Assembly: GCA_013327885.1 (NCBI GenBank)
Contig: JABUMY010000008.1
Coordinates: 209,682 to 273,681, forward strand
Reading direction: 5' to 3'
Source of the DNA: Flavisolibacter longurius
GTDB lineage: Bacteria > Bacteroidota > Bacteroidia > Chitinophagales > Chitinophagaceae
Length of the DNA: 64,000 nucleotides
Part shown: piece after piece, positions 17,544-64,000 of the stretch
How positions within the stretch are numbered: position 1 is the first letter of the stretch
Layout: every line of letters starts with the position of its first letter
Made by a program: the position numbers and the translations under genes
Notes under the pieces: generated by a model
The model's database searches: none
What the model was told of the DNA's origin: nothing
What the model saw: only the letters and a program-made list of their open reading frames with translations

Positions 17544-17687
17544 ATTTCTGAATTTATTTTGCCTACTCTTAATTTTTCCGTTTTCGGCTTCCCGGCTGCT
17601 TACTCTTTTAGGATTTTCAGCATTTCTCCTTTGTAATTCACAGGTGGTGTTTTCATAAACAGATCTCGTTTAACATATGATGATGAT

Positions 17688-48977: not shown

Positions 48978-48984
48978 TTTTTGC

Positions 48985-49551
48985 ATGACCATTCCCCGAC
49001 AAACAAAAGACACCTTTGAGCTGCTTAGCAAGGGGCAATTTATCTGCTCCAACAGTGTTGACGACAACATCCGCAAGCTTTACAACATCATCGAAGAAAA
49101 TTATGAAGACCTGTATACCTATTTTTCCGCCATCGGTTTTGCGCTGGAAAAGGGCGATGAGTTCTTTTATTTTTCCCGCCACGAAACAAAAACAGAGCTG
49201 GAGCGTAAGATAGAAGCTGCCTACCGCTGGATTGATCTGGTGGATTTTTGCAAGACTTTCGATAACGCCTTCGGCTCCGGTTACCGGTTTACCGCTTCGC
49301 AAATGGAAGTGCAGTTGCGGATGGATGCCCTGCTGAAAGACAAACTGGAAGGACTGAAACGCCACACAGGCGAAGGCTCGTTTCCCGAACGGATAAAAAA
49401 GTTGATAGAAATGCTTTACAGCTATGGCGTTGTTGAAATGGACAATAACATCCATCAGCAATACAAAGTGCTTTCCTCCTTTACCTATTTGGAGCAACTA
49501 ATCCTGCAAATTCATATACCCGAAGAAACCCAGCATGAGATACCTCAATAA
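48985..49551 (+). CDS. jetB: Wadjet JetB-like / MukE-type protein
   Basis: 188 residues from the ATG at 48985 (MTIPRQTKDTFELL); a longer frame to 48925 would overlap the previous gene. Two winged-helix-like regions are visible: DTFELLSKGQFICSNSVDDNIRKLYNIIEENYEDLYTYFSAIGF and IKKLIEMLYSYGVVEMDNNIHQQYKVLSSFTYLEQLI. In MukBEF and Wadjet, MukE/JetB is the small KITE partner that binds the kleisin. Overlaps jetC by 17 bases. Confidence 0.75.
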   Translation: MTIPRQTKDTFELLSKGQFICSNSVDDNIRKLYNIIEENYEDLYTYFSAIGFALEKGDEFFYFSRHETKTELERKIEAAYRWIDLVDFCKTFDNAFGSGYRFTASQMEVQLRMDALLKDKLEGLKRHTGEGSFPERIKKLIEMLYSYGVVEMDNNIHQQYKVLSSFTYLEQLILQIHIPEETQHEIPQ

Positions 49552-52500
49552 AATTGTGTTCATCAACAGCGCCACCATCCGGTATGCCGATGTTCGTTTA
49601 GACGGTAATGTGCACCTGATTGGAACGCAAGGCGTGGGCAAAAGTACCCTGCTCCGGGCTATCCTGTTTTTCTACAATGGCGATACCCTGCGGCTGGGCA
49701 TACCCAGGGAGAAGAAAAGTTTTGCTGACTACTATTTCCCCTTCCAAAATGCTTACCTGGTGTATGAAGTGATGCGGGAGACAGGTCCGTATTGCGTTCT
49801 CCTTTTCAAATCACAGGGCAGGGTTTGTTTTCGTTTTGTGGATGCCGCTTACGATCAACAGTACTTTCTGTCACCGGAGGGAAAGGCTTACGAAAGCTGG
49901 GAAGACACCCGGCGCCTGTTGGATGAAGACGGCATTCATTACAGCCGCAAGGTGGATCGCTATGACGAATACCGTGACATTCTGTATGGCAGCAACGAAG
50001 GCAAAAAAGAGTTCCGCAAATATGCGCTGCTCGAAAGCCGGCAGTACCAGAACATTCCCCGCACGATTCAAAATGTATTCCTCAACTCAAAGCTGGAGGC
50101 GGAGTTTATCAAGCAAACCATCATCCTTTCGCTCAACGAGGAGGACCTTGCCATCAACCTGCAGAATTATGCTCACCACCTGAAAAGCTTTGAAGCACAA
50201 CTTACCGACATCAACCGCTTTAAGCAGCCGGCGGTAGCCAAACAAGGGGCTGAAGTGGTGAACCTTTACGCCGCTGTTGGCTATCTACAAAAAGAAAAAG
50301 AAGGGTTGGCCCGGCAACTGGCCGCTGCTTTTGACTTTGTTCAACGTACAGCGCCAAAGCTGCTGGAGAAAAAAGAGCGGGAAGAGGAAGCAAAGAAAAC
50401 TTTAAAGGAAAGGCTCGGGGAGGCAGAAAAGCGGTTCCAGAACCGTATCCAAAAGTTAAGGGAAGACATCAGCGTCGTGAACGACAAGCTAGCCACCATC
50501 AAACAAAAAACTGCCTATTACGAGGGGCTGAACATTGAGCAGGTGGTGCAAAGGGTGGCAAAGAAAAGTGACCTTGAAGCAGAAGAAAAAAAGCTGCTGA
50601 AAGAAAAAGCGCTTCTCTCCGCACAGTTTACCGAAGTCACCCGGAAATACGAAGCCTTGTTCCTTTCGTTGGAAGAAAGCCACCGTGCGTTTGCCCTGAA
50701 CAAAGAGGGGCAGCGGCTGCAACTACGGGAAGAATTTCTACGTGCAAAAGACGAAGCCCGAATGGAGCTGGACGAATTGTTAGCAGCTATCCGGCAACAA
50801 CACCAGCAAACGATGGCTACCGCCACTCAGGAAACAGAAGAAAAAGGGGCCGCCCTGCAGGAATGGAAGCTAAAAAAGGAAGCAACTAGACACCAGCGGT
50901 TTTACGAAACAGAAATAGCGGAAGCCGAAAAAGAGCTTAGCCGCCTGACGCTGGCCATTCAGCAAGGTCAGAATGCCATGGCACATGCCAATGAAATCAT
51001 GGAAACGTTGCAGAAGCAATGGCAGTTGGACGAAGCGGCAATGCTTCAAAAAGCCGAAGCGGAAGAAAAAGACCTTCGCCGTGATGTGGCGGTGGAGCGT
51101 GAAGCACTTTCCGCCCTTGAACAAAAGCTTCAAAAAACAGAGCAGTCCTTTTACGGCTGGCTAAACCAGCATTATCCCGGCTGGGAAGCTACCATTGGCA
51201 AAGTCTGCGACGAACAACTTCTTTTCCGTGATGACCTTTCACCGCTGCTGCAGGAGGCCAGCAGGAGCTTGTACGGCGTGCAGATCCAGTTATCCGGCAT
51301 CGAAAAAGAGGTCAAAACCGTGGCGGAATATGAAACAGAAAAAGAAGCAGTGCACAAACAGATGCTGGCAACAAACGAACAGTTGAACGCCTTACAGGAG
51401 AAAAAGCGGATCGGGCGGGAAAGCCTGAAAAACAAATACGGTCCTAAGCTAATCGAGCAAAAAGAAACGGTGCGGGAACATCGGTATCACCTTGAACAAA
51501 ATCAGCAGAAACAGAAACAAACAGCGTTACACTTGCTGGACCTGCAACAGAAGGCTGCCACAGAAAAACAACAAACGCTGGCGGCAATGGATGAGGGCAT
51601 CGCGGCGGCGGCTGAAGCCCTCTTACAGGCCCAACAGGCCCTGGCTACTATCAGGAACGAAGAAGAAAAACAGGTGCGAAAGCAGCAAACGGCGCACCAG
51701 AAAAAGCTCGAAGAAGCCGAACAGCGGCTAAAAGAAGCGTACAAGAAAATTGACGTTGAAATTAAAACCAACGAGCAGGAATATCAACTTCAGAAAGGGG
51801 ACATCAGTCGCCGGCAGGAGGCAGAACTGGCCGGTAAAGGCGCTGACACCCGGCGCCTGCATAAAGTGGAAACCTTATTACAAGGTCTTCAACAGGAGCT
51901 GGCATTTATTGAAGAAAACCGGGAGGTGGTGGCCGTGTATAAACGAGATAAGGTAGAGTTGCTGGATAGAGCCGGTGAACTTAAAAATGGAAAAGCGCTG
52001 CTGGAGCAGGAGGTGCTGAACGAAGAAACAAAGTATCGCCAGAAAAAAGGAAACCTGGAGGAAAATCTGCAAAAGCTGGAGGAGGCTATCCGGCTCCTTG
52101 CCATCCGGCTTCAACAGGCGGAAGAAGACCAGCAAGCGTTTGAACGCTTTCAGGTGACAGAAACCTTTCTCAATATCAGCACAGAAATCTGGAATAGCAA
52201 AGAAGGAGCCCAAACAGAAAAACGCTGCAAAACCCTGATTGAAGAATTGCACCAGTGTGATAACAAGAGCATCAGGCGTGTAGACGATTTAAAAGATGCA
52301 GTAAACCGATTTTTGGGCCATTTTTCCCCAGACAATATTTTTCATTTTCCTACCAACCTGCCCGACAAAGAAGCGTACTTCCGTTTTGCCCGAAGCCTCG
52401 ACGACTTCCTGGCTGATCGGAAAATGGACGAATACGAACGCCGGGTGAATGAGCGGTTCTCCTTTATCATTCACTTAATTCGTAAAGAAACGGGCAACCT

Positions 52501-53182
52501 GCTGGCGAAGAGCGGGGATATCTTAAAAGTAATCAACCAAATCAACCGGGACTTTGAGCGGAAGAACTTTGTGGGCGCCATCAAAAAAATCGAATTGCGG
52601 TTAAGTGAAAGCCAGGATGCAGTGGTCCTCCTCCTGCAGGCCATCAAGACATTCGGTGACGAAAATGACTATGACCTTGGTGGTGCCAACCTGTTCGCCA
52701 CCCAAGACCAGGAAGCCAAGAACAAAAAAGCTATCAGTCTGCTGCTGCAGTTGGTGAAGCTCATTGGCGAAGCCAAACGGGAAAGCATCACGTTGTCCGA
52801 TTCGTTTGAACTTGAGTTTCGCATCCAGGAAAACCAGAACGATACCGGTTGGGTGGAAAAGCTCTCGCATGTGGGCTCCGAAGGCACCGACGTGCTGGTG
52901 AAGGCCATGGTAAACATTATGCTGCTGAATGTATTTAAGGAAGGGGTTTCCAAAAAGTTTGCGAATTTTCGCCTGCATTGTATGATGGATGAAATCGGCA
53001 AGCTCCACCCCAACAACGTGAAAGGCATTTTGCAGTTTGCCAACGACCGGGATATTTACCTGATCAACGGTTCGCCAACTGAAAGCAATGCCCTTTCGTA
53101 CAAACACATTTACAAGCTGGAAAAAGACGAGAAAAGCTTCACCCGGGTGAAACGCATTGTCACCAACAAAGCCCTTGTATGA
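49535..53182 (+). CDS. jetC: Wadjet JetC-like SMC/MukB-type ATPase
   Basis: 1215 residues. N-terminal ABC-type head: VHLIGTQGVGKSTLLRAILFFYNGD (Walker A, GTQGVGKST at about 30-38), GIPREKKSFADYYFPF, then long coiled-coil arms (about 250-960, Glu/Lys/Gln/Arg-rich), a hinge region mid-way, and a C-terminal head half (LSHVGSEGTDVLVKAMVNIMLLNVF, signature; FRLHCMMDEIGKLHPNN, Walker B MMDEIG). This is the SMC-like subunit of Wadjet/MksB/EptC-type DNA-loop extruders that eliminate plasmids. Overlaps jetB and jetD (4 bases). Confidence 0.9.
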   Translation: MRYLNKIVFINSATIRYADVRLDGNVHLIGTQGVGKSTLLRAILFFYNGDTLRLGIPREKKSFADYYFPFQNAYLVYEVMRETGPYCVLLFKSQGRVCFRFVDAAYDQQYFLSPEGKAYESWEDTRRLLDEDGIHYSRKVDRYDEYRDILYGSNEGKKEFRKYALLESRQYQNIPRTIQNVFLNSKLEAEFIKQTIILSLNEEDLAINLQNYAHHLKSFEAQLTDINRFKQPAVAKQGAEVVNLYAAVGYLQKEKEGLARQLAAAFDFVQRTAPKLLEKKEREEEAKKTLKERLGEAEKRFQNRIQKLREDISVVNDKLATIKQKTAYYEGLNIEQVVQRVAKKSDLEAEEKKLLKEKALLSAQFTEVTRKYEALFLSLEESHRAFALNKEGQRLQLREEFLRAKDEARMELDELLAAIRQQHQQTMATATQETEEKGAALQEWKLKKEATRHQRFYETEIAEAEKELSRLTLAIQQGQNAMAHANEIMETLQKQWQLDEAAMLQKAEAEEKDLRRDVAVEREALSALEQKLQKTEQSFYGWLNQHYPGWEATIGKVCDEQLLFRDDLSPLLQEASRSLYGVQIQLSGIEKEVKTVAEYETEKEAVHKQMLATNEQLNALQEKKRIGRESLKNKYGPKLIEQKETVREHRYHLEQNQQKQKQTALHLLDLQQKAATEKQQTLAAMDEGIAAAAEALLQAQQALATIRNEEEKQVRKQQTAHQKKLEEAEQRLKEAYKKIDVEIKTNEQEYQLQKGDISRRQEAELAGKGADTRRLHKVETLLQGLQQELAFIEENREVVAVYKRDKVELLDRAGELKNGKALLEQEVLNEETKYRQKKGNLEENLQKLEEAIRLLAIRLQQAEEDQQAFERFQVTETFLNISTEIWNSKEGAQTEKRCKTLIEELHQCDNKSIRRVDDLKDAVNRFLGHFSPDNIFHFPTNLPDKEAYFRFARSLDDFLADRKMDEYERRVNERFSFIIHLIRKETGNLLAKSGDILKVINQINRDFERKNFVGAIKKIELRLSESQDAVVLLLQAIKTFGDENDYDLGGANLFATQDQEAKNKKAISLLLQLVKLIGEAKRESITLSDSFELEFRIQENQNDTGWVEKLSHVGSEGTDVLVKAMVNIMLLNVFKEGVSKKFANFRLHCMMDEIGKLHPNNVKGILQFANDRDIYLINGSPTESNALSYKHIYKLEKDEKSFTRVKRIVTNKALV

Positions 53183-54033
53183 AGTTACCGCTTCACATAG
53201 CCCACTACCTGCAAAAGATGCTGGAGGGTGCGGAAGTGCCTTCCAGCAAAATGCGCCATGCTGTCACAAAAAAGATGCAGGACGACGGCATCTTGCAGGC
53301 AAAACAAATAGGCCGTACCCAATCTACACTCCTGCTTCGCAACAAAGCTGCTCTTGCCGCTTATTTGCACAATCAGTTCGGCATCAGTGATCTTTCCACT
53401 TACATTAAAAAATATGAAAGTCCCGGACTAACCAGAGCCGAAGCAGTGGAGATTGCTTCCAATTCAAAGCTTCGATCTATCCGCACCTTCAAAGGTTTTT
53501 TGGTGAACTGTTACGATCCGGTGCAGGCGGTACTTCACAACAAGTCGATTACCTTGTTGCCAGCAGTGGGTACCTTCACGTTTATCCATGATTATGAAGC
53601 TTTTTTGCCGGGAAAAGAAATCACCATTGTGGGCATCGAAAACCCAGAGAACTTCCGGTGGATAGAAAGACAAAAACATTGGTTTACCCTCCTTCAGCCC
53701 TTGTTTGTAAGCCGGTATCCTCAAAGCGGCGATCTTGTGCAATGGCTACAGAATATCTCCAACCCTTATCTCCACTTCGGTGATTTTGATTTGGAAGGCA
53801 TCAATATCTATTTATCAGAATACAAAAAACATCTTGGCGACCGGGCTTCTTTTTTTATACCGGAAGGGATAGAAGAATTGATAAAGAAGAAAGGCAACCG
53901 GGATTTGTACAACAAACAATTTCACCGACTATCGCAGGCGGAAGGCATTACTGAACAACCGTTGTTGGAATTACTGGAGATAATCCACCGATATAAAAAA
54001 GTGCTGGAACAGGAATACTTAATCGTAGCATAG
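53179..54033 (+). CDS. jetD: Wadjet JetD-like topoisomerase-type nuclease (Toprim fold)
   Basis: 284 residues. An N-terminal winged-helix-like part (HYLQKMLEGAEVPSSKMRHAVTKKMQDDGIL) and a C-terminal Toprim domain: ITIVGIENPENFRWIE with Glu154 as metal-binding residue and LHFGDFDLEGINIY with Asp202/Asp204 (D-x-D). JetD is the nuclease subunit that cleaves circular plasmid DNA after loop extrusion by JetABC. Shorter than usual type I JetD (about 350-400 aa), so it may belong to a less studied Wadjet class. Ends convergently 21 bases from the next gene. Confidence 0.85.
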   Translation: MKLPLHIAHYLQKMLEGAEVPSSKMRHAVTKKMQDDGILQAKQIGRTQSTLLLRNKAALAAYLHNQFGISDLSTYIKKYESPGLTRAEAVEIASNSKLRSIRTFKGFLVNCYDPVQAVLHNKSITLLPAVGTFTFIHDYEAFLPGKEITIVGIENPENFRWIERQKHWFTLLQPLFVSRYPQSGDLVQWLQNISNPYLHFGDFDLEGINIYLSEYKKHLGDRASFFIPEGIEELIKKKGNRDLYNKQFHRLSQAEGITEQPLLELLEIIHRYKKVLEQEYLIVA

Positions 54034-54054: not shown

Positions 54055-55569
54055 TTATACGTTTTGAAGCTCAAAAACTTTCCACCCCCAGGACTTTTTT
54101 TCGCTGTTGTAGGATCTGATGATTCTGCCTTTTACGGACTGCTGATTCCTTAGATTGTACTTTTTGACCAAAGAGGGGTGAATAAAAGAATCCTGAACAA
54201 AGCCGAACGGTTTTCCTTCTGCAATTCTTACCTCGCCGCTTACAGGCTTTATAAACTGACTGCGGAAATTTTCATCATTCGCCTTCTCCAGCGTAAAGAG
54301 TTTGAAGTGGCCTTCACTCCCCTTGCCGTCAAAGCGCACCTTGAGCGTATCACCGACTTTTAAGGTGTCAATAAACCGGTCATACTTAAAGAAGCCGAAT
54401 TTTTGTTCGGATGCAATAAAGTTGGCGATTTTCTTATCGGTGTTTACAAATTCAATCAGTACCGTTTCTTCAGGAATGTCGGTGTAAAGCAGATTGTCGG
54501 CGATGGAAAAATACTTTTTATAAAAGTCGAAATTTGAGTTTTTTAGCGTTGCAGCCTTATACCAGGGTTGTGCCATCCAATTCTGCACTTCGGCTGGCAG
54601 TTTCCATTCGTTCGCCTGCCTGGCTTTGATAATCCGGTCTATTTCTGTTTTTGCCTCGTTGAACATATTGTGGCTGATAAACCAGCGTGCCATTTTCTGG
54701 CGAATGTTGATCAGGAAATCATCGGAGGTTTTACAGGTCAAGGCCTTGCAATAACAGGCCAGCCTCTTTTGCTCATCATCCGGAAATGCTTCGCTCATGA
54801 CGTCCCATACCCAAAAATTGTTTCGCTTCTTTTTGGCAAAGGGCAGCAGTGCGGAAAGCATATTCTCCTGGTCGCCCAAGGCCAAGAGCAACTTTGCCTT
54901 AAAATAAGGCGGATACTGGTATTCCGGGTGTGCCTCAATGACCCCATCTAGTAAGGGAAGAAAATCCGTTGCTTTCTCCCTGTCAAAAATGACTTCTCCA
55001 TGAAATGAGGTGCGGGGTAGCAGATGCTTGCAATAGGCAATGATGGCCTGTTCTGCTGTTGCCATCACCTCTTTGCCGTTTGGCAGTTTTTCCTTTTGGT
55101 AATCTTCTGCCTTGAAATTGTTGAAGTCCCACCAGTTGGCAAATTCTGTATAGGTCGTTCCTTCTTTGAAGGCTTTGTGAAAGGCCTTAAAAAGGAAGCT
55201 ATAAGCATCAGATGGCTTTGTCAGGTGGAACTGCCTGCAAAACTGATAAAGGGGGTGAATTTTATTCTGATCAACGGGTTGTTCCTTCAGCAACAGAAAA
55301 ACCATTTTGCCGAGCTGCCAGGAGAGCTGGTCAAAGAGCATTTTTTCATCTTCCGGTAGCTGCAGGGCAACGATTTGCTCTACATAGTGTTTGAACGTAT
55401 CGTAACTGGCTACAGCGGTATTTTGCTTCACGAAATCATACAACACCCAGCTTAGGTTTCGTTTTGTCCAAATATTATCCGGCTCAGCCTCGCATTCTGC
55501 TTTGGCCATTGCATAGGCTTCCTGCAGCTTACCACATTGTCGTAGTTCTTTGATTTCTTTAGCCGGCAT
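54055..55569 (-). CDS. TPR and OB-fold protein, last gene of the retron operon
   Basis: 504 residues. N-terminal 330 residues are helical repeats of TPR type (AYAMAKAECEAEPDNIWTKRNLSWVLYDF, then repeats through WFISHNMFNEAKTEIDRII). The C-terminus has a cold-shock/OB-like domain (FGFFKYDRFIDTLKVGDTLKVRFDGKG, about 410-440) and a second OB-like segment (GKPFGFVQDSFIHPSLVKKYNL..SVKGRIIRSY). Likely binds RNA or single-stranded DNA. Its start overlaps the helicase stop by 11 bases, so the pair is co-translated. This fold combination is known from predicted prokaryotic conflict proteins, but I cannot name a family. Confidence 0.65.
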   Translation of the reverse strand: MPAKEIKELRQCGKLQEAYAMAKAECEAEPDNIWTKRNLSWVLYDFVKQNTAVASYDTFKHYVEQIVALQLPEDEKMLFDQLSWQLGKMVFLLLKEQPVDQNKIHPLYQFCRQFHLTKPSDAYSFLFKAFHKAFKEGTTYTEFANWWDFNNFKAEDYQKEKLPNGKEVMATAEQAIIAYCKHLLPRTSFHGEVIFDREKATDFLPLLDGVIEAHPEYQYPPYFKAKLLLALGDQENMLSALLPFAKKKRNNFWVWDVMSEAFPDDEQKRLACYCKALTCKTSDDFLINIRQKMARWFISHNMFNEAKTEIDRIIKARQANEWKLPAEVQNWMAQPWYKAATLKNSNFDFYKKYFSIADNLLYTDIPEETVLIEFVNTDKKIANFIASEQKFGFFKYDRFIDTLKVGDTLKVRFDGKGSEGHFKLFTLEKANDENFRSQFIKPVSGEVRIAEGKPFGFVQDSFIHPSLVKKYNLRNQQSVKGRIIRSYNSEKKSWGWKVFELQNV

Positions 55570-57745
55570 ATTCTGCTTGTTTGAAGGTTTGTAAGGTGGT
55601 TTGAATATCGTGCAACAGCGTTGTACTGTTCGTTCTCCTTAACGGCACCACCCTTCCAAAAAAGCCATTCGCATTGTACTCAAAATCAATCACTGCCGTT
55701 TCCGCTCCCCGTTTGAAGGTATAGCGCTCCCGATAGGCCTGGTGCTCCAGTTCATCAACCACAATACCGGCTCCTGCCAACGCAGCGGTAAGGTCATCAA
55801 AGAGGTTCTTGGTAAAGGGGAACTTTTCCTCCAATTGCAGGTCAAACACTATTTTCGTCAGAATGGTTTCCGTCGTGTTTCTCTTTATCGAGACATTGGG
55901 CAGCATTCTCACCAAACTCTCAACTGCTTTTAGCAGGCTGTCGCTATTGGTGGCAGAGGCAATTGGCTGGTATCGTTCGTTGAACACCAGGTCTTTGTTC
56001 ACCCATGTCTTCAGGGCCGCCGTTTCTCCCTCTCTGCCAAAGAAGTAAAACACCTCCGCGTTTTTCTTCTGCCAGCCTGTGATCTCAATGTACTGCCCTC
56101 TTACACTGTGCCGCATTTTGATAAAATGGTCCTGGAGCTGAACGGGCTGCTCCAAAAGTCCAAACTGCCGAAGCTGTTGCAGCAGGTCATCATCCAGGCT
56201 GATCTCTTCTGCCGCAATTTGGCCTGCCGTCAGGTTGTTCAAGGCATCCACCACAACCGCATCCAGGAAGGTCATGGAAGAATAGGAGTTAAAATAGGGG
56301 GGGTTGAGCGCAAACAGCTTTCCGGAGGCACGGGTAACGGCCGTATAGGCCCAACGATAAAAATCCTCATTAGTTTTCCCGCTTCTTCGCTGCGCATCCT
56401 GAAAACAGTCGAAGCCATTGGTACTATCATGGTCCCAGACGGTAAATACATTTTCCCACTCGCCACCCTGCGCTTTGTGACAAGTTACTGCATAGCCAAA
56501 CTTCAGCAGCAGGCAGTTGAAATATTCATCTTTTATGATGGCCTGTTTGAATTCGTCCGTTCCCGGTTTTAAATCTTTGTGGCGCATGCAGAAGTCTACA
56601 TACAAAGCCTGGGTTTCTGCCGGCTGAAGGAAATTATCGCCATACAGAAAATTCTCCAGCATTTTGCCGCTTACAATTTTGTTGTTGTTTTCGGCATCCG
56701 GAAAAAGCAGTTCAACGCTACGCCATGTCAAGGTTACAGGTGGTTGTCCCCGCAAGCCGATGGTTCTTGTTGTGGCAATGGCGGCAGCGTCATTTACCAC
56801 CGCAAACTCCCCATTGAAGATCCCCTTGCGGTAGTTGTTGCCACCCATAATGATGGTGTCGCCTTTTTGCACCGGCAGGTTCAGGTCACCGTATTTCCTT
56901 TGCCTTATCTGCAGGTTCAGGTCAAGTGCCGTTTTGTTCTTGTAGGTTACGATGATTTTAGGGCTGGCGGCCTGCTCCCACGTATGAAGAAAGCTCTCAT
57001 AGGAAGGATTAAAAATGTCTTTGCCGTTTCCGGTGAGATTGAAGTCGTTGAAAAAACCTGCGGAAATGCTTTTTCTTATCCTCACTGCCGCGTTCAAGAT
57101 TCCGCTGTCGCCGCCCTGCCGCTTTACTTCTTTCATTTCCGCCTCCTCTACGGAAACCCCAAACTTCTCCTGCAGGTAAGCGGTGTCAAATGCTTTGGAG
57201 CTGTTGTCGTTTACCGGGGGCAACTGGCAGGGATCGCCAACAAAAATGATTTTGGTGTTGGCTGTTCCGGCTTTGATCCTGGTGTAGGTGAAAAGATCTG
57301 TTAGCAGATAACCGGTGCCAAAGCGAAAAAACTCACCCTCGCTTTTTGCATCTGACAACATGGATGCTTCATCCACGATAAAGATCTTGTTGTGTACATC
57401 GTCGTTGTTCCGGATCTTAAAATAGTAATAAAAGGATTCGCCATTCTTTACCTCCACCAAATCTTCGTAGCTGTAGATGCCTTTATGAACGGTATAGGCT
57501 TCTTTGCCTGTTTTTTCCCGAATAACCTTTGCGGCCCTTCCGGTAGGGGCCATGAGCATATACTCTTTTTCTATGGAGGAAAGATATTCAACCAAGCCTT
57601 TCAGGATGGTGGTTTTACCACTACCTGCGTAACCTTTCAACTGAAATATTTGTGCGGGACTGATAATAAAGTCTTGCAGCTTTTGGAGAGACGATTGCTG
57701 TTCGGCTGTAAGTGCAATATGTTGAAAGAAGGCAAAAATACTCAT
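55559..57745 (-). CDS. RecD-like SF1B helicase
   Basis: 728 residues. Motif I GYAGSGKTT (38-46), motif Ia MAPTGRAA (about 65-72), motif II IVDEAS (123-128), motif III FVGDPCQLPPV (about 175-185), later motif V/VI region VTCHKAQGGEW (about 420-431) and AYTAVTRAS, all typical of RecD/TraA-type 5'-3' DNA helicases. The C-terminal 230 residues (about 500-728) are family-specific and contain no nuclease motif that I can see. It follows the 648-residue receiver gene by 9 bases and overlaps the TPR/OB gene, so the four are one operon with the retron RT. Confidence 0.9.
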   Translation of the reverse strand: MSIFAFFQHIALTAEQQSSLQKLQDFIISPAQIFQLKGYAGSGKTTILKGLVEYLSSIEKEYMLMAPTGRAAKVIREKTGKEAYTVHKGIYSYEDLVEVKNGESFYYYFKIRNNDDVHNKIFIVDEASMLSDAKSEGEFFRFGTGYLLTDLFTYTRIKAGTANTKIIFVGDPCQLPPVNDNSSKAFDTAYLQEKFGVSVEEAEMKEVKRQGGDSGILNAAVRIRKSISAGFFNDFNLTGNGKDIFNPSYESFLHTWEQAASPKIIVTYKNKTALDLNLQIRQRKYGDLNLPVQKGDTIIMGGNNYRKGIFNGEFAVVNDAAAIATTRTIGLRGQPPVTLTWRSVELLFPDAENNNKIVSGKMLENFLYGDNFLQPAETQALYVDFCMRHKDLKPGTDEFKQAIIKDEYFNCLLLKFGYAVTCHKAQGGEWENVFTVWDHDSTNGFDCFQDAQRRSGKTNEDFYRWAYTAVTRASGKLFALNPPYFNSYSSMTFLDAVVVDALNNLTAGQIAAEEISLDDDLLQQLRQFGLLEQPVQLQDHFIKMRHSVRGQYIEITGWQKKNAEVFYFFGREGETAALKTWVNKDLVFNERYQPIASATNSDSLLKAVESLVRMLPNVSIKRNTTETILTKIVFDLQLEEKFPFTKNLFDDLTAALAGAGIVVDELEHQAYRERYTFKRGAETAVIDFEYNANGFFGRVVPLRRTNSTTLLHDIQTTLQTFKQAEYAG

Positions 57746-57754
57746 GACGTATTA

Positions 57755-59701
57755 CTAAATTTTTGAGTCATCTCCTGTTAGAAGGAAAAAAATCAATCTA
57801 AATAAGTCCCATGTTGCGTTACTGGGTAATGATTTGTCTTTTTCGAGTTGACTATGAAAGAATGAATTGCTTTCTTCGCCATGAGTAATATAAAGCCTGT
57901 TCCGCTGATCGTTTGCATTCTTCAATATCTTCAAGTACTCCTCCTGCTTACTTGAAACCGATAATTGTTGCTTCTCAAGTAATAAAAACGCAATTTGAAA
58001 GCTTAGCTTTTGCTCTGGAAATGAGACGAATGTTTTCAAGTAGTTCCCAAGACTATCCCTGGTTGAGTAGTGTGGTGCCCTGTTCGAATTATAAGATAAA
58101 TAACAATTAACATCAGAATCTATTAGATAATCACCGTTTGAATCTACTCTGAAACCACCGGAGCTTTTTGTTCTTATTGAGATATTTATGCGCTCAAAGT
58201 AGATATCTTGTGGTTGTCCTTTCACATGCCATTTCTGTAAATACTTGTAGTTGATTCGATTCCTTCTATCTGAAGGATCTGACTTTGTTAGCGGAGTATA
58301 AGTTTTGCTTCTATAATCCCATATAATATCTAGTGTTGTATATTGTTTCGTAAAGTAACACTCTTGAACCTCATTCAAAATACTCCATAAAGTCATAAAC
58401 GATAAAACATCAGATGAAAAGTGAAACTTATCTGTATTGTAGGCAAATTCCTCATACCTTTTTTTCATTAGCCCATAAAACATCTCGAGCCTTTCGATGA
58501 TCCTGCTTTTCAACTGACAATTTGCTGTATCTACCACCTCAGGTAGGAGTGAGTTTTTAATTTGAACTATCGCAACCCAATACTGCTTTAATACTTCTGC
58601 TTTTTCTAGTTGAAAATTTATTTCCGAAATGAAATCATAGTAGTTATCCAAAGAGTCGGTTTGACTGCTCTCTGGAGAGTCCTTGACATACATCGCATCA
58701 GCACCCAAGTTCAGGATTTTATCGAGCGTGTGAGCCCGTTGAGATGCAGTGAAAACGATCAAGGGTATATGAAGTGAACTTTCATCATTTTTTATTTTCT
58801 CAATAAGCTTGAATCCATTCTTGATATCGATTTGAGCTCTTTGCTGGTCTTGCGGTAAACGTAAATCAAGGAATATAATGTTGTACTCGGAGAAGTCGGT
58901 TATATCATTTGCATCTTCAAAGTTCACTTTCACATCAATAATTGCCTCAGAAAAAACTATTCCTAAAGCAAACTGCCATCCCTTCTTCCCATTATCATCG
59001 ATTAGAAGAATCTTTTTGCATTTTGAAATGCTGATTGCAAACTTCTTTCGCTCCTTTTCCAGTTCCGCTCTATTGAAATATTTAGTATAATTAATGACAG
59101 AACTATCAGTGATTTCGTACTCTTTAAGCTTTTGCTTGAAGTATACCGTTTTCGGCAACTCAAATACCCTCTCAATTTCGCCAAGTGTTAATCCATGATT
59201 ATACAATAGTTTCACTGTTCCCCATTCGTTTGTTGCCTGATGCCTGTCAACAACTAACAACTTTCTAAAAAGATCCTTATAATTATTATAGTCAAAATTT
59301 AATTGAAACTGAGATCGAATAATCCTTTGATTTTCTTCATCATCTATTGCTTCAAGAAGTTTCTTTTTAGTTATGATCTGTATTCCCTTCGTTCGAAATA
59401 GTCCAACATCTTCAAAACCGTGAACACTTGACTCGTACTCCGAAAAATATACGATTGTGCCACCATTAGATGAAAGTATATGATGCCCAACTAAAAATTT
59501 GTCGCAAATAGACATATCAAAATCTATTGCAATTAAGGAATGTTCTGTGGTTAAACTTGAAGAGATAACATGTGGTACATATTCTTGAGAATATAACTCC
59601 CATGTTTCAGGACATTCTTTAATATAGCTTTTACAATCAATGACCCTAACAGCAGTTTTAAGTCCAGTAAATCGTTCCGGCTTATCGGTTATAATTATCA
59701 T
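57755..59701 (-). CDS. Large protein with canonical receiver (REC) domain in its middle
   Basis: 648 residues. N-terminal 130 residues: an alpha/beta receiver-like domain without phospho-acceptor (SLIAIDFDMSICDKF, GTIVYFSEYES). Then a helical link with a helix-turn-helix-like stretch (GTVKLLYNHGLTLGEIERVFELPKTVYF). A complete REC at about 228-345: acid pair Asp235/Asp236 (ILLIDDN), acceptor Asp279 (IIFLDLRLP), Thr318 (IVFTAS) and Lys340 (MYVKD). The C-terminal 300 residues are helical and then beta-rich, no family recognised. It begins 7 bases after the small receiver-like gene. Probable response regulator or output of the RT operon. Confidence 0.75.
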   Translation of the reverse strand: MIIITDKPERFTGLKTAVRVIDCKSYIKECPETWELYSQEYVPHVISSSLTTEHSLIAIDFDMSICDKFLVGHHILSSNGGTIVYFSEYESSVHGFEDVGLFRTKGIQIITKKKLLEAIDDEENQRIIRSQFQLNFDYNNYKDLFRKLLVVDRHQATNEWGTVKLLYNHGLTLGEIERVFELPKTVYFKQKLKEYEITDSSVINYTKYFNRAELEKERKKFAISISKCKKILLIDDNGKKGWQFALGIVFSEAIIDVKVNFEDANDITDFSEYNIIFLDLRLPQDQQRAQIDIKNGFKLIEKIKNDESSLHIPLIVFTASQRAHTLDKILNLGADAMYVKDSPESSQTDSLDNYYDFISEINFQLEKAEVLKQYWVAIVQIKNSLLPEVVDTANCQLKSRIIERLEMFYGLMKKRYEEFAYNTDKFHFSSDVLSFMTLWSILNEVQECYFTKQYTTLDIIWDYRSKTYTPLTKSDPSDRRNRINYKYLQKWHVKGQPQDIYFERINISIRTKSSGGFRVDSNGDYLIDSDVNCYLSYNSNRAPHYSTRDSLGNYLKTFVSFPEQKLSFQIAFLLLEKQQLSVSSKQEEYLKILKNANDQRNRLYITHGEESNSFFHSQLEKDKSLPSNATWDLFRLIFFLLTGDDSKI

Positions 59702-59708
59702 GTTTGAT

Positions 59709-60353
59709 CTATAATTTTCTAAGTTCGTCGATCAAGTCAGGCCCATTCGCATTTGTTATACGTTTGAAGGTAGCCGTGTCATTTCCAACGCATTTTAGTT
59801 TTAGGAATTGAATAAACTCTTTTGAATTCGTGATTTGATGGTGGGTATAGTCGTTATCCTGCATTTCAACAATCCGCCCGACAAGTCGCTTTTCATAGTC
59901 AAAAAATAACACCTCAAGCAGCCACTCATTGACTAAAACAGACTTTTTTAAAAATTCACTAAAACGATCCCATAATTTAGGTCGTGTGATACTCCTATAT
60001 ATATAAGGCGGATATTCTGTATTCAAGAAGCTTTCCTTAATATTTCCACTGAATAGTATCAATCTATCTTGCAGTTTTATCTTGATCAAATCAATGATAT
60101 TGGAAGGAAAATAGCTGTCACCTTGTTGACTGTGATGAATGAACACATAACTGTATTTTGAAGCTTCGAATAACAACTCACAGGCATTCCCAGCTATGTC
60201 CCACTCAAAGTACTTGTCAGCTGATTTGGCTACTTCTACTAAGTGGCTGTATTCACCAACTCTATCTTTTAGCCATTTAACAGTCATTGGACTAGCATCT
60301 CCAGAAACAGGGTCTACATAATTTTTATCGTCAATAATCAATAACTTCTGCAT
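59709..60353 (-). CDS. Degenerate receiver-like protein, second gene of the retron operon
   Basis: 214 residues from the ATG at 60353 (MQKLLIIDDKNY), which follows the RT stop by 4 bases; the longer frame to 60395 would overlap the RT gene. Receiver-type fold: acid pair Asp8/Asp9 in LLIIDDK, but the acceptor strand is YSYVFIHHSQQG, with His73/His74 where Asp should be, then RLILFSGN (Ser102) and a basic YIYRSITRP. It therefore keeps the Mg pocket but not the classic phosphorylation site. Remaining 90 residues are mixed. Possible adaptor that senses the RT's C-terminal domain. Confidence 0.65.
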   Translation of the reverse strand: MQKLLIIDDKNYVDPVSGDASPMTVKWLKDRVGEYSHLVEVAKSADKYFEWDIAGNACELLFEASKYSYVFIHHSQQGDSYFPSNIIDLIKIKLQDRLILFSGNIKESFLNTEYPPYIYRSITRPKLWDRFSEFLKKSVLVNEWLLEVLFFDYEKRLVGRIVEMQDNDYTHHQITNSKEFIQFLKLKCVGNDTATFKRITNANGPDLIDELRKL

Positions 60354-60357
60354 AATA

Positions 60358-62679
60358 TCAATCGTAAAAAGTAAACACATAGTTGAATCCACCAACAGAA
60401 TTTTCTATCGGCATTACCTGCTCCGAGAAAGGCAAAATGCTGCATTCATAGCTTTCGCCTTCTAAAGTTTGAAATTGTACTCTGAAATCACAAAGCCCTA
60501 CTAGGACACTGAAAAAATCTCTGCGTAAATCTTTTAGCACATGATTTAAAGTCCCCAAGAAGACGGATCCTTTATCCAAAATCGAAAATTCAATTTTGAT
60601 AACATCACCATCCAAAAACCTTTTTAGTTGAAATATTATATTCTTGTCTTGCGAAAGGAAGTTTCTGTTTCCTTGAACGTTTGAATGTTTTAATATGCCA
60701 TCAAAAATTATTGTCAAAGCAATCTTTACACTAGGAACCCAAGAAAAAAAATTTGCTTTGGCCTGGAATTTTTCCAGATCAGGATAAAAAATCAGTTGTT
60801 CAATATTAAACAAAGGGGAAGTAGCCGTATTCCCAAATGAAAAAACAATACCTTTTTCCTGATCCGTAAACGTTCGCCGTTTAGCAATATTTGTAATCAT
60901 TTCAGAAAGAATAGAAGATTCACTTCTTTCGTTTCCAAACCGATAGTTCCTTTTGAATTCCTGTATTACAGCTCCAATTTCTTTGTTTTCTAATGGATGA
61001 AGCCCAGTCTTTTCAAAGTACTGCAGTCCTTTTGTGCTAAGTTTTCCAAAGAAATGTTGCACATCCTCGATCAGGTATTTAGGTAACTTTACCTTCCTTG
61101 TATTGGAATGAAGAATATCGAGAAACTCTTTATTTGCTCTTCTCAGCACTTTTAAATAATCAGTCCTATTATCACCTACCGGCAAATGGACTAAATCCTT
61201 GAAAGAATATTTATCGTCGTATTTGAACGATTTTAAAAAATCGACCGTAATTGCTGGCTTGTGAAAAGTCTGAGTTGTTTTTGAGGTTTCAAATGTTTGA
61301 AAAACAAAATTAGTTTTCGGCTTTAAATTATCAAAACGTTCTTTCAATGTCAAGTAAGCCCTGCTACCACCTTGCACCATTCTTAAATAGTCCAACTTAC
61401 CAGAAATAACTTTTGCCATTTCTGGTTTTCCCTTATAAGGTCCTTTGTCAACTATATATTGCTGAAGAAAAAAGGAAGAGGCTCTCTCATAGCCATATTG
61501 CTCCCAATAGTACAACCACATACGAAGCTGCTTTTTATAATGCTTCTGAACATTCACTCTCTCGTTGACCACAAGGCCAGTCACTTCTTGGCGAAAACCC
61601 TCTTTCTGCAGCCTTGTTTTACTTTCCTTTATATGAAAACCCTGCTGTTTAATTATTCTTTGTAATTCTTTGACAAATTCACTTCCATTCTGATATACGT
61701 TGTGCATTGAACTGAAGGTGATATCGTCTGCATAACGGCTATATCTTAATCCAAACCTTTTCGTAACACCGGAAAGTAAAAAATCGAGCTTTTGACAGAC
61801 TATATTTGTCACAACGGGAGAAGTTGGCGCTCCCTGAGGAAGAACGTTACGCTTTACCTTTACCCATTCTTCCTGCTCATTTTTCCGCTCCACCTCCATT
61901 TCTGTACAGCAGATGGCAGCAATAACGTTAGCAAGTTTTGACCTGTCAGCTTCTTCTAAAAGCTTTGTGTATTTTTCTTTAATTAAAAGTGTCAGTGAAT
62001 CTGCTATGATCTTTTGCGCCGGAATAGCGTGTTCTTCAGCAATCTGCTCTACTCTTTCGATCCAAGCCTTATAATCACCCTTGTTTTTTAATAGCTGAAC
62101 CTTGTTTCGGTCTTGATCAATTTTGTAAAAGATCACCTCACCTTTTGAAGTGGTGACAGAGCCAATTCCCGGATGGATCAACTGAAACCACTGGCGATCC
62201 TTTCTTTGTTGATTATTCAGGTTCAGGGGTGGCAACTGTAGGCATTTCCAAACTCTTGCCTGGTCGACAGAAGGAAAAAAGTCTTTCAGATCTATGTTAT
62301 AGATGTATTTCTGCCCCTCATGCAAGCGGGCATTGTCGACAATTGATCTATCCCTGACAAACCCCATGGCAGCTTTGTGCGGTTCGTGCACGCATTGCAG
62401 AATGTAAGCCAGTGTTTTCTGGATGGCTTTTAACCCTTCGACAGGCGCATGAATTGTTCTTTCGCTACCGGACTTTTTTTTGATGCTAAAAGTTGAGTAC
62501 CGCCTGCTGTTGATCTTTGGATTTGCATACCAGGTAAGCTGCTTTAATTCAAACGGCACCGTTTTCGATTCATATGCAAGTGGTTTAGCATAATTGAGAA
62601 GGGCCAACAAATCTTCCTTTGTCAGCATTTGTGACCAGGCTTCTCTGATATAAGCAGTATGTTTCTCGTCTGGCTTCAT
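60358..62679 (-). CDS. Retron-type reverse transcriptase with C-terminal extension (possible degenerate histidine-kinase-like ATPase fold)
   Basis: 773 residues; retron RTs are usually 300-400. RT motifs in order: TFSIKKKSGSERTIHAP (about 63-79), catalytic NIDLKDFFPSV (128-138), LPQGAPTSPVVTNI (about 290-303), SRYADDITFSS (314-324; active-site Asp318/Asp319), and QEVTGLVVN (about 364-372), where VTG is the retron-specific region Y. Between motif A and LPQG is an unusual insertion of about 130 residues (150-285). The C-terminal 400 residues are extra; the last 125 (about 648-773) contain FDGILKHSN, VIKIEFSILDKGS and QFQTLEGESYECSILPF, which read like a GHKL/HATPase fold lacking the N-box Asn and the second Gly of the G1 box. 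Preceded 9 bases upstream by the retron ncRNA. Confidence 0.85.
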   Translation of the reverse strand: MKPDEKHTAYIREAWSQMLTKEDLLALLNYAKPLAYESKTVPFELKQLTWYANPKINSRRYSTFSIKKKSGSERTIHAPVEGLKAIQKTLAYILQCVHEPHKAAMGFVRDRSIVDNARLHEGQKYIYNIDLKDFFPSVDQARVWKCLQLPPLNLNNQQRKDRQWFQLIHPGIGSVTTSKGEVIFYKIDQDRNKVQLLKNKGDYKAWIERVEQIAEEHAIPAQKIIADSLTLLIKEKYTKLLEEADRSKLANVIAAICCTEMEVERKNEQEEWVKVKRNVLPQGAPTSPVVTNIVCQKLDFLLSGVTKRFGLRYSRYADDITFSSMHNVYQNGSEFVKELQRIIKQQGFHIKESKTRLQKEGFRQEVTGLVVNERVNVQKHYKKQLRMWLYYWEQYGYERASSFFLQQYIVDKGPYKGKPEMAKVISGKLDYLRMVQGGSRAYLTLKERFDNLKPKTNFVFQTFETSKTTQTFHKPAITVDFLKSFKYDDKYSFKDLVHLPVGDNRTDYLKVLRRANKEFLDILHSNTRKVKLPKYLIEDVQHFFGKLSTKGLQYFEKTGLHPLENKEIGAVIQEFKRNYRFGNERSESSILSEMITNIAKRRTFTDQEKGIVFSFGNTATSPLFNIEQLIFYPDLEKFQAKANFFSWVPSVKIALTIIFDGILKHSNVQGNRNFLSQDKNIIFQLKRFLDGDVIKIEFSILDKGSVFLGTLNHVLKDLRRDFFSVLVGLCDFRVQFQTLEGESYECSILPFSEQVMPIENSVGGFNYVFTFYD

Positions 62680-62688
62680 AAAGTAGAT

Positions 62689-62935
62689 GTTCTTTGAAGC
62701 CTGCTACGATATTCTTTGTTTATGAATTCATATATATATCAATAATAAATAAATAATATTTCCGGGATAAAACAATTAGCGGGAGTTGACAGGTAAAAGG
62801 ACAAGATTCCAATACCGCACAACCACAATAACCAGGAAACATTCATTCTCCGAAAAGCCGGAGAACACCAACCGATCTGAAGCCGGAGCTTCCAGTTGGC
62901 ACGAATCAATATGTTGCAGCAGGCTTTCAAAGAAC
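62689..62935 (-). ncRNA. Putative retron ncRNA (msr-msd) with a1/a2 inverted repeats
   Basis: On the minus strand the 5' end GTTCTTTGAAAGCCTGCT (62935-62918) pairs with AGCAGGCTTCAAAGAAC (62705-62689), 17 base pairs with one bulged A: the a1/a2 stem that defines retron RNAs. Inside are stem-loop 1 (CCAAC/GTTGG outer pairs at 62868-62899 with inner GAAGC/GCTTC), stem-loop 2 (TTCTCCG/CGGAGAA, 62846-62865), and a longer stem formed by 62832-62842 with 62756-62766 (10 of 11 positions pair, one G-U) closing a 65-base loop, a candidate msd hairpin. Total 247 nt, ending 9 bases before the RT start. The branching guanosine could not be assigned. Confidence 0.8.
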
Positions 62936-62940
62936 AGGCA

Positions 62941-62976
62941 CAAACTAAAACCGTTTCTGTGCAGTGTAACTGCACA
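62941..62976. promoter_or_regulatory. Retron ncRNA promoter element and palindromic operator
   Basis: On the minus strand TAGTTTG (62947-62941) resembles the Bacteroidota -7 box TAnnTTTG (one base short) and would start transcription at the first base of the a1 repeat (about 62935). Just upstream lies the perfect palindrome TGTGCAGT-GTA-ACTGCACA (62958-62976), about 50 bases before the WYL start on the other strand. Likely operator for the WYL protein controlling both sides. Confidence 0.6.
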
Positions 62977-63025: not shown

Positions 63026-64000
63026 ATGGCTACCAATAAAAACGCCCTTATCCGCTATAAAGTGCTCGACAGCTGCTTCCGCAACCCGGCCAAGAAATAC
63101 TTTATTGATACACTCATAGAGGAATGTAACAAGGTGCTGGCGGAAATTGACCCAGATACAAACGGCATTAGCCGTAGGCAGGTCTTTGATGACATTGCCT
63201 TTATGGAAAGCCCCGAAGGGTGGAGCATTGACCTCCTCAAACTTCGGGACGGAAAACGGGTCTACTATCGCTATGCCGATCCGGCTTTTTCCATCAACAA
63301 TATGCCGCTGAATGAGGTTGAAGTGGCGCAGCTTCAATCGGCGGTGGATATCTTGTCGCAGTTCAAAGGAATGCCGCAGTTTGAGTGGATCAACGAGTTG
63401 CTACCGAAATTGAAACAGGGTATGGCCTCTGATACAAAGACAGATGCCATTATTGAATTTGACAGCAACCAATACCTGAAGGGCATTGAACATCTTGGCA
63501 CCCTGCATAATGCAATCTTCTATAAAAAGGTACTGCACATCAGCTACCAGCCTTTTGAAAACGAAGCGCCGTTCGCCGTTATTCTCCACCCCTACTTTTT
63601 AAAACAATACAACAACCGGTGGTTTCTTTTTGGCTACAATCCGGAAAAAGAAAAGTACGACTGGAACCTGGCGATTGACCGGATTGTTGATATTGGGGAA
63701 AGCAAAGGTAAATACCACAAAAACACCCGAATTAACTGGCAGGAGTACTTTGATGACGTTATTGGTGTGACCAAGCCGGCAGATGCGCAAGTGGAAACGA
63801 TTATCCTGCACTTTTATGGTAGGACCGGCAACTACATGGAATCAAAGCCGATCCATGGCTCACAAAAGTCGAAATGGCTGGACGGAGAAACTCTGGAAGT
63901 CAGACTGGAACTGATCATTAATTACGAACTAGAACGGCTGATTCTTTCATATGCCGACAGTGCAAAGGTTGTCCATCCGTCCCGTTTAGCCACTAACATT
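63026..64000 (+). CDS. WYL-domain transcriptional regulator (cut by window edge)
   Basis: 325 codons to the window end. N-terminal winged helix (LIRYKVLDSCFRNPAKKYFIDTLIEECNKVL and GISRRQVFDDIAFMES), central segment (VEVAQLQSAVDILSQF), and WYL domain (FYKKVLHISYQPFENEAPFAVILHPYFLKQYNNRWFLFGYNPEK, about 168-215). WYL proteins bind nucleic acids or nucleotides and regulate many anti-phage systems. The start ATG at 63026 is the first in frame. It is divergent from the retron ncRNA and separated by the palindrome at 62958-62976. Confidence 0.9.
   Translation, partial: MATNKNALIRYKVLDSCFRNPAKKYFIDTLIEECNKVLAEIDPDTNGISRRQVFDDIAFMESPEGWSIDLLKLRDGKRVYYRYADPAFSINNMPLNEVEVAQLQSAVDILSQFKGMPQFEWINELLPKLKQGMASDTKTDAIIEFDSNQYLKGIEHLGTLHNAIFYKKVLHISYQPFENEAPFAVILHPYFLKQYNNRWFLFGYNPEKEKYDWNLAIDRIVDIGESKGKYHKNTRINWQEYFDDVIGVTKPADAQVETIILHFYGRTGNYMESKPIHGSQKSKWLDGETLEVRLELIINYELERLILSYADSAKVVHPSRLATNI

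What the first reader, a model, noticed from the sequence alone, without database searches (positions are those of the whole stretch)
54055..62935. Retron operon coupled to two-component-like receiver proteins and a RecD-like helicase
Seen: a retron-type RT (YADD at 316-319, VTG at 366-368) preceded by an a1/a2-flanked RNA region, followed with gaps of 4, 7 and 9 bases by a degenerate receiver protein, a receiver protein with full Asp/Asp/Asp/Thr/Lys set, and a RecD-like helicase that overlaps a TPR/OB gene. The RT ends in a region that reads as a degenerate GHKL/HATPase fold. Known: retrons pair an RT and ncRNA with a toxic effector; classes described to my knowledge (ATPase/HNH, nucleoside transferase, PRTase, TM, cold-shock, DUF3800) do not contain receiver domains. 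Inference: msDNA state controls a phosphorelay-like or conformational receiver that releases an effector.
Basis: partly seen in the sequence, partly recalled or inferred. Interest (0 to 1): 0.95.

Follow-up and report, generated by a model that had tools for sequence, protein, structure and literature searches.

The report
Retron wired to receiver-type killer protein
A bacterial reverse transcriptase with its own conserved, likely template RNA is fused to a worn-down histidine-kinase-like domain and lies in one tight gene row with two receiver-type signalling proteins and a helicase pair; it is predicted to be an antivirus alarm in which the receiver protein would release a likely RNA-cutting domain, a wiring not found in the papers searched.

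Summary
Window 54055-62938 (minus strand) carries a retron by sequence: a covarying a1/a2 + msr RNA, an RT (NAxxH, YADD, VTG) fused to a Pfam HisKin-conflict domain, a pseudo-receiver, a receiver protein with the full phosphorylation set, and a RecD-like helicase/TPR-OB pair of the TOTE / PDC-M16 families. The link is not chance: in a class-wide sample all 5 HisKin-conflict genes (4 besides the window's) are fused to or beside a related RT and followed by a receiver gene. The N-box Asn is lost in 80 of 88 of these kinase-like domains, while a Lys-x3-His pair is kept, so ordinary ATP-driven phosphorelay is unlikely. And the receiver protein carries an invariant RNx5H motif near its end, which suggests a HEPN RNase effector; profile searches did not confirm that fold. 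Best reading: a retron whose HEPN-like effector is gated by a degenerate two-component module, with the TOTE pair as a frequent, exchangeable partner. New variant of a known kind; the papers searched do not link retrons to this module, but two key papers are not held. All function is predicted.

The parts
62686..62938 (-). retron ncRNA region (msr-msd): a1 62916-62935, two msr hairpins about 62844-62902, a2 62689-62707; a2 ends 9 bases before the RT start codon
   Evidence: Fold -82.4 kcal/mol; 32 consensus pairs, 15 with double changes in 7 loci; model R1 finds the msr just upstream of RT genes in six loci not used to build it, four at E 4e-12 to 0.0016 and two weakly at E 0.3 and 0.51
62959..62975 (.). 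palindrome GTGCAGN5CTGCAC between the divergent WYL gene and the ncRNA, likely WYL regulator operator
   Evidence: Only match in the window with up to 1 mismatch, 0.10 expected, 9 of 100 shuffles had one; exact in 6 of 15 RT loci, 1-2 mismatches in 3 more (the window has 5 sites with up to 2 mismatches)
60358..62679 (-). retron-type reverse transcriptase fused to HisKin-conflict domain (773 aa)
   Evidence: Pfam RVT_1 and HisKin-conflict; PADLOC retron RT models up to 314 bits; alignment A2
60364..61269 (-). kinase-like domain (aa 471-772): conserved K494 and H498, N-box Asn lost, G1 box partly kept (DKGSV)
   Evidence: Pfam PF22561 E 2.3e-26; K494 and H498 in 87 of 88 domains, the other a gap
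59709..60353 (-). small pseudo-receiver (214 aa from ATG 60353): DDK kept, phospho-Asp replaced by His
   Evidence: Alignment A3; model pLDDT 87.1; 9 of 9 loci show H-x-S at the Asp place; fold
57755..59701 (-). receiver protein (648 aa): N-terminal part in the place of iREC of relatives, REC aa 229-367, likely HEPN effector domain aa 372-648
57881..57904 (-). RNRLYITH (aa 600-607), RNx5H motif of the likely HEPN active site
   Evidence: R600, N601, H607 invariant in the 52 sequences aligned; RN-x(3-5)-H in 8 of 9 receiver effectors, the ninth cut by a contig end
55559..57745 (-). RecD-like SF1 helicase with TBP-TOTE domains (PDC-M16A)
   Evidence: Pfam TBP-TOTE E 1.1e-33; PADLOC PDC-M16A E 3e-269
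54055..55569 (-). TPR / DUF7017 / S1-CSD protein (PDC-M16B)
   Evidence: Pfam DUF7017, S1CSD-TOTE-1 and -2; PADLOC PDC-M16B E 1.5e-225
63026..64000 (+). divergent WYL-domain regulator, cut by the end of the window
   Evidence: Pfam WYL E 6.8e-10; 64-69% identical divergent gene in Pontibacter and Rufibacter loci

Best explanation
This is a retron by sequence, whose RT is fused to a degenerate histidine-kinase-like domain; it is predicted to hold a receiver protein with a likely HEPN RNase end in an inactive state until infection disturbs the msDNA complex. Shown by sequence: the ncRNA, the RT motifs, the fused kinase-like domain, the pseudo-receiver, the complete receiver, the invariant RN...H in the receiver's C-terminal domain, and repeated co-occurrence of these parts. 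Inferred: (1) RT makes msDNA from the ncRNA and stays bound to it; (2) the kinase-like domain, together with the pseudo-receiver, docks the receiver protein; (3) a phage factor or nucleic-acid damage alters the msDNA, perhaps through the RecD/TBP helicase and TPR-OB pair; (4) the receiver is freed, or is phosphorylated by small-molecule phosphate donors or a host kinase; (5) the HEPN-like ends pair up and cut RNA, stopping growth before phages are made. A WYL regulator likely sets the operon's level through the GTGCAGN5CTGCAC palindrome.
For: Retron identity. Kinase-like domain; fused (4) or adjacent (5) in 9 loci, each with a receiver gene downstream. Search started from the kinase-like family rather than the RT: 5 of 395 class genomes carry it and all 5, the window's included, have it fused to or beside a related RT and followed by a receiver. 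RT and receiver families share longest-contig lengths in 12 of the 20 best receiver relatives, the window included. Full receiver set invariant in 52. RN-x(3-5)-H in 8 of 9 effectors; shuffles of each give a hit of this kind in 1.5-9.6% (the proteins are related, so these do not multiply). Weak HEPN-type Pfam hits fall on this motif in two relatives: HEPN_RiboL-PSP E 0.041 in the G379 effector, DUF4145 E 0.01 in the L033 effector (that DUF4145 is HEPN-like is recalled). A HEPN tRNase held by a retron complex is reported for type IX retron-Kva2 (PMC13405049: abstract and passages seen).
Against: The HEPN fold was not confirmed: the C-terminal profile found no solved structure, its 10 members gave no HEPN family in Pfam, and neither did the effectors of L031, L032 and L036, L078, G150 and L079, G578 and G581. 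Profile comparison with RiboL-PSP-HEPN sequences gave probability 0.3%, no better than a TPR control at 0.2%. The fold search tested only the receiver part, because receivers fill the list. Model residues 601-620 are less certain (pLDDT 65-69). G379 and G578 carry the RT and kinase-like domain without the TOTE pair, so its role is optional or independent. The window's own G1 box still reads DxG, so residual nucleotide binding is not excluded. Nothing shows that msDNA is made or that the genes act against phage. The receiver's phosphorylation set is invariant, which a purely conformational gate would not need.
Confidence: 0.55

Rival explanations
1. A true phosphotransfer system: the RT-borne domain works like the degenerate kinases Spo0B or ChpT (recalled), with H498 passing phosphate to D279 of the receiver, and msDNA state setting the flow.
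For: K494 and H498 are present in 87 of 88 kinase-like domains, the other being a gap; the receiver phosphorylation set is invariant in the 52 sequences aligned; 8 of 88 domains keep the N-box Asn, so the domain likely descends from a working kinase.
Against: ATP-binding motifs are mostly lost, no other kinase gene is among the operon's Pfam hits, and H498 has not been placed on a dimerisation helix by any structure here.
Confidence: 0.25
2. The TOTE helicase/TPR-OB pair is the real effector or sensor-effector, and the receiver protein is only a regulator without nuclease activity.
For: The pair is present in 5 of the 7 kinase-bearing loci where the contig lets one tell, and in two loci without HisKin-conflict, L033 and L061; TOTE is described as a family of conflict systems (PMC12458937 passages).
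Against: G379 and G578 have the retron, kinase-like domain and receiver-effector without it; the candidate effector motif is conserved in both groups.
Confidence: 0.15
3. Two independent defence systems lie side by side: a retron with a two-component-like effector, and a PDC-M16 (TOTE) pair that merely hitch-hikes in the same island. This is compatible with the best explanation except for the helicase's part in it.
For: 11 of 13 genomes with TBP-TOTE in the phylum sample show no RT in the stretch fetched, 4.4 to 16 kb, some cut by contig ends; PADLOC treats PDC-M16 as a separate candidate.
Against: Same order and strand in window, L031, L032 and L034 with gaps of 9, 76, 125 and 76 bases, in G581 with two small reading frames between, and behind other cassettes in L033 and L061.
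Confidence: 0.3
4. An ordinary known retron type (XI, XII, XIII or IX) with nothing new but sequence divergence.
For: Best RT profile matches are types XI, XII and XIII; type IX also uses a HEPN effector.
Against: The C-terminus matches HisKin-conflict and no protease, TIR or Toprim family; the first RT_IX model ranks 24th at E 2e-48.
Confidence: 0.08

Closest known systems
Retron types XI (RT-protease), XII (RT-TIR) and I-C (RT-Toprim, Ec67)
   Same: Retron RT with a second domain fused at the C-terminus; among the nearest RT profiles, and Ec67 is the nearest solved RT by sequence
   Different: The fused domain is a degenerate HATPase and the likely effector lies in a separate receiver gene
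Type IX retron-Kva2
   Same: Retron whose toxic part is a HEPN RNase held in check by the RT-msDNA complex (PMC13405049, abstract and passages)
   Different: Kva2 has a stand-alone HEPN and a winged-helix protein; 'kinase' and 'response regulator' do not occur in that paper's main text; here the likely HEPN is the output domain of a response-regulator-like protein
AbiA
   Same: A defence RT coupled to a HEPN domain (PMC8934634 passages)
   Different: AbiA's HEPN is fused to the RT; that paper's main text has no HATPase, histidine kinase or receiver
TOTE conflict systems / PADLOC PDC-M16
   Same: Helicase with TBP-like domains plus TPR and S1/CSD protein; TOTE stands for TPR, OB, TBP, Effector (PMC12458937 passages)
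   Different: Mostly found without an RT nearby (2 of 13 genomes had one); here attached to a retron
HisKin-conflict / iREC families in Pfam
   Same: HisKin-conflict over its cut-off in the window; iREC over its cut-off in L032, L036, G379, G578 and G581, not in the window
   Different: Pfam names them from conflict contexts; our searches found no text that links them to retrons, but a likely source, the TOTE review, is not held
Degenerate phosphotransferases Spo0B and ChpT (recalled)
   Same: HATPase-type protein that lost ATP binding, conserved His, partner receiver
   Different: Fused to a reverse transcriptase; phosphotransfer untested

Membership tests
Retron | RT with YADD, NAxxH and VTG motifs (that the last two mark retrons is recalled) | tested here: met
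   N116 A117 H120, Y316-D319 and V366-G368 invariant in the 36 sequences aligned
Retron | ncRNA next to the RT with a1/a2 inverted repeats and msr hairpins | tested here: met
Retron | Production of msDNA | not testable with these tools
   Needs nucleic-acid extraction
Retron type XI / XII / I-C | Fused protease, TIR or Toprim domain | tested here: not met
   Best stretches end at profile positions 264-386 of 475-568, and Pfam finds only RVT_1 and HisKin-conflict
Retron type IX | HEPN plus winged-helix gene | tested here: inconclusive
   No winged-helix family hit in Pfam for the operon proteins; HEPN only by motif
HisKin-conflict (PF22561) | Profile over curated cut-off | tested here: met
   93.6 bits, cut-off 27, full profile 1-303
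Active histidine kinase | N-box Asn and G1 DxGxG | tested here: not met
   Gly at the Asn place in the window; Asn in 8 of 88; the window's G1 reads DKGSV, first Gly kept, second lost
Response-regulator receiver (large protein) | Acid pair, phospho-Asp, Thr/Ser, Lys and receiver fold | tested here: met
Active receiver (small protein) | Phospho-Asp and conserved Lys | tested here: not met
   His86 in place of Asp and no invariant Lys after the FSG motif in the 8 sequences of A3; His also in 9 of 9 loci
HEPN RNase | R-x4-6-H motif (recalled) | tested here: met
   RNRLYITH 600-607; R, N and H invariant in 52
HEPN RNase | HEPN profile or fold | tested here: inconclusive
   No profile match for the window's domain; fold of this part not searched alone
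TOTE / PDC-M16 | TBP-TOTE helicase next to TPR with S1CSD-TOTE domains | tested here: met

The most novel reading that the evidence does not exclude
A retron in which reverse-transcribed DNA is read out through two-component parts: an RT-fused kinase relic with a conserved His, a pseudo-receiver in which the phospho-Asp has become a conserved His, and a receiver whose output is a HEPN toxin. Phosphate or conformation passes from the RT complex to the toxin, so msDNA state would be transduced by a signalling relay rather than by simple sequestration.
Probability: 0.3. Interest if true: 0.9.

Novelty: new variant of a known kind. Interest (0 to 1): 0.75.

Why it matters
Retrons are known to sequester toxins, but how msDNA state is turned into toxin release is open for most types. 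Here a small, well-understood signalling part, the receiver, lies between RT and likely toxin, and its phosphorylation residues are kept in every sequence aligned. This makes the coupling step testable by single substitutions. It would also show that defence systems reuse worn two-component parts as a switch, and that one retron core can be combined with interchangeable cassettes (kinase-like/receiver/HEPN-like, TmtA-like HATPase with a DUF4145-like protein, TOTE or DpdF-like helicase).

Tried and rejected
HEPN by homology: profile of 10 C-terminal domains against PDB (0 matches), its members against Pfam (no HEPN), profile comparison with eight reading frames taken automatically from RiboL-PSP-HEPN loci, two of which lacked the motif (0.3%; a TPR control gave 0.2%). 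So HEPN rests on the motif, the helical surroundings in the model and weak hits in two relatives. HEPN chains did not appear in the fold lists, but those lists are filled by the receiver domain and say nothing on this point.

Rfam: no retron family matched the ncRNA at gathering level, and at E up to 10 only two chance-level matches. This says the RNA was not matched by Rfam, not that it is absent. Promoter-like sites were at shuffle level (21 against 19.9) and terminator-like sites near it (11 against 8.2), and were not used.

I considered an ordinary type XI retron and rejected it because the protease part is missing. I considered the TOTE pair as the core of the system and rejected it because two loci lack it. 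No tree was built: 'related RT' means a phmmer or tblastn match.

Papers: searches. 'retron' with 'HATPase' gave one paper, PMC13092281, in whose passages the HATPase and receiver domains stand in a figure legend on untested predicted systems, not tied to retrons. 'PDC-M16' and 'TOTE conflict systems' gave none. Passages only were seen of PMC7159879, PMC12458937, PMC12548924, PMC13092281 and PMC8934634; of PMC13405049 the outline, abstract and passages; the rest were listings. That no text links retrons to this module holds for these searches only. The retron classification paper (PMC7736814) and the TOTE review are not held; what I say of retron types beyond PADLOC's labels is recalled.

Selection effects: loci L031-L036 were fetched with the RT as query, so RT presence there is by construction; the test free of this is the kinase-family search, whose two samples overlap. 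For one search I aligned 52 of the 119 receiver matches, and for 36 of the 80 listed RTs that carry PF22561; one search lists 120 of 5523 matches, and the 80 of 120 (window included) was counted by eye from that list. One search used 26 of the 120 RT contig lengths and 24 of the 119 receiver ones, so 12 of 20 is a lower bound. L033 and L035 are two copies on one contig and count once. L036 is cut inside the receiver protein and is the one miss in the 8 of 9 motif count.
Full report
What is there. On the minus strand the window carries, in order, a structured non-coding region (62938-62686), an RT gene (62679-60358), a small receiver-like gene (60353-59709), a large receiver gene (59701-57755), a RecD-like helicase (57745-55559) and a TPR/OB gene (55569-54055). 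There are 9 bases between a2 and the RT start, then gaps of 4, 7 and 9 bases and an 11-base overlap. A divergent WYL-domain gene starts at 63026 and runs to the window's end. The window ends at base 273681 of contig C51 and the contig listed for its RT is 273681 bases long, so this gene is likely cut by the contig end.

The retron. PADLOC's retron RT models match at up to 314 bits, types XI, XII and XIII first, and the nearest solved structures by sequence are retron RTs, Ec67 first. The RNA upstream folds with an a1/a2 stem and two msr hairpins. Across seven loci 15 of 32 pairs show changes on both sides, against 4.6 on average in shuffles (none of 500 reached it), and sliding the partner by 1-3 columns drops paired cells from 92% to under 48%. 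The sequences are related and the structure was derived from them, so these controls favour it somewhat. A model built from the msr of six loci finds it just upstream of the RT in six loci outside the training set: L074, L078, L149 and L075 at E 4e-12, 1.8e-8, 1.5e-4 and 0.0016, and L148 and L073 only weakly at E 0.3 and 0.51. It finds nothing in the six TOTE-only loci searched, nor at L036, L076, L077, L079, L080 or L147 (L036 starts 188 bases before its RT and L147 cuts it).

The kinase-like domain. Residues 471-772 of the RT match Pfam HisKin-conflict over the whole profile (93.6 bits). The same domain is fused in 80 of the best 120 RT matches listed, the window included, and is a separate gene next to the RT in five loci (L032, L036, G578, G581, G423). 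In 88 domains aligned, K494 and H498 are present in 87, the other being a gap; the N-box Asn is present in 8, the G1 Asp in 53, and a Ser three places later in 87. The window's own domain has lost the Asn but its G1 box still reads DKGSV. So the domain has mostly lost ATP-binding motifs but kept a Lys-x3-His pair whose role is unknown.

The effector. The large protein's C-terminal domain holds invariant R600, N601 and H607. An RN-x(3-5)-H motif lies in the last 150 residues of the receiver protein in 8 of 9 loci, and the ninth (L036) is cut by its contig end. Small proteins that take this place in loci without HisKin-conflict have a similar R[N/D]-x3-H in 3 of 5 (L033, G169, L078; the last is matched by 17% of its shuffles), while in G150 and L079 a shorter RN-x2-H can be read. 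Weak Pfam hits to HEPN-type families fall on the motif in two relatives; the other relatives scanned gave none. Direct tests for HEPN in the window's domain were negative or could not see it. I take HEPN as likely, not shown.

The TOTE pair. The helicase carries TBP-TOTE domains and the partner DUF7017 and both S1CSD-TOTE domains, and both match PADLOC PDC-M16 models almost end to end. In a phylum sample 13 of 395 genomes have TBP-TOTE, and 2 of these 13 (the window's and G169) have an RT next to it in the stretch fetched. Among nine kinase-bearing loci the pair is present in five (window, L031, L032, L034, G581), absent in two (G379, G578) and untestable in two at contig ends (L036, G423). 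It also follows RTs without HisKin-conflict in L033 and L061. In a viral contig (L078) a DpdF-like helicase takes a similar place.

Is the coupling real? The kinase family was searched without reference to RT: 2 of 395 phylum genomes and 5 of 395 class genomes carry it, the samples overlapping, and in all five class genomes it is fused to or beside a related RT and followed by a receiver gene.

How it most likely works. Reported for another retron: type IX retron-Kva2 holds a HEPN tRNase that is freed when a phage protein engages the msDNA (PMC13405049, abstract and passages). By analogy, I propose that here the RT's kinase relic and the pseudo-receiver hold the receiver-HEPN protein, and that infection frees or activates it. 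Whether phosphate is involved is open: the receiver's invariant set argues for it, the degraded ATP site against ATP-driven transfer from this domain. The WYL gene and its palindrome (exact in 6 of 15 loci) likely control dose.

Comparison and novelty. It meets the sequence criteria of a retron but not the fused-domain criteria of types XI, XII or I-C; the type IX criterion is inconclusive. The parts belong to named families or resemble them; the combination, and a receiver as the link between retron and likely toxin, was not found in the papers searched (listed in Tried and rejected). Since Pfam already names HisKin-conflict, iREC and TOTE domains, their authors may have seen such loci; the TOTE review is not held. 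I therefore call it a new variant of a known kind.

Noticed in passing
window 47790-54033 (+): Wadjet-like condensin operon: MksE-like gene at 48925 (PF21980 E 4e-39), DUF3584/JetC-like SMC at 49535, JetD-like at 53179, ending 21 bases from the convergent TPR/OB gene. PADLOC Jet models match only weakly.
   Followed up: partly
window 39209-41677 (-): TraG-type conjugation ATPase (PF19044 E 1e-233) in a run of same-strand reading frames from about 30.9 to 41.7 kb, so the defence genes may be cargo of a conjugative element.
   Followed up: no
window 62959-62975; L031-L034, L061: Palindrome GTGCAGN5CTGCAC between WYL gene and ncRNA, present twice, 87-88 bases apart, in the Pontibacter and Rufibacter loci L031-L034.
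   Followed up: partly
L033 11190-14638: Same RT, WYL and TOTE frame but a TmtA-like HATPase (PADLOC E 2e-110) and a DUF4145-like 274-aa protein in place of kinase-like domain and receivers: another HATPase plus possible HEPN.
   Followed up: partly
L033 and L035 (Pontibacter arcticus NZ_QMDV01000006.1): Two copies of the same locus, with the same gene coordinates in both fetched stretches, on one 139-kb contig, about 74 kb apart; a recent duplication or an assembly artefact.
   Followed up: no
L078 7295-16275 (viral contig): WYL, RT, 241-aa RNESSH protein and a 1455-aa DpdF-like helicase: the retron core joined to a different helicase.
   Followed up: partly
window RT aa about 155-245: Insertion of roughly 90 residues between RT motifs, present in some relatives (P0004, P0010, P0022) and absent in others (P0002).
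   Followed up: no
small receiver His86 of alignment A3 (window 59709-60353): A receiver-like protein in which the phospho-Asp is replaced by His in all nine kinase-bearing loci; whether this His is a phosphate carrier is unknown.
   Followed up: partly
window 2611-2656 (+) and 17597-17631 (-): Rfam matches Acido-Lenti-1 and DUF805b RNAs over their gathering scores.
   Followed up: no
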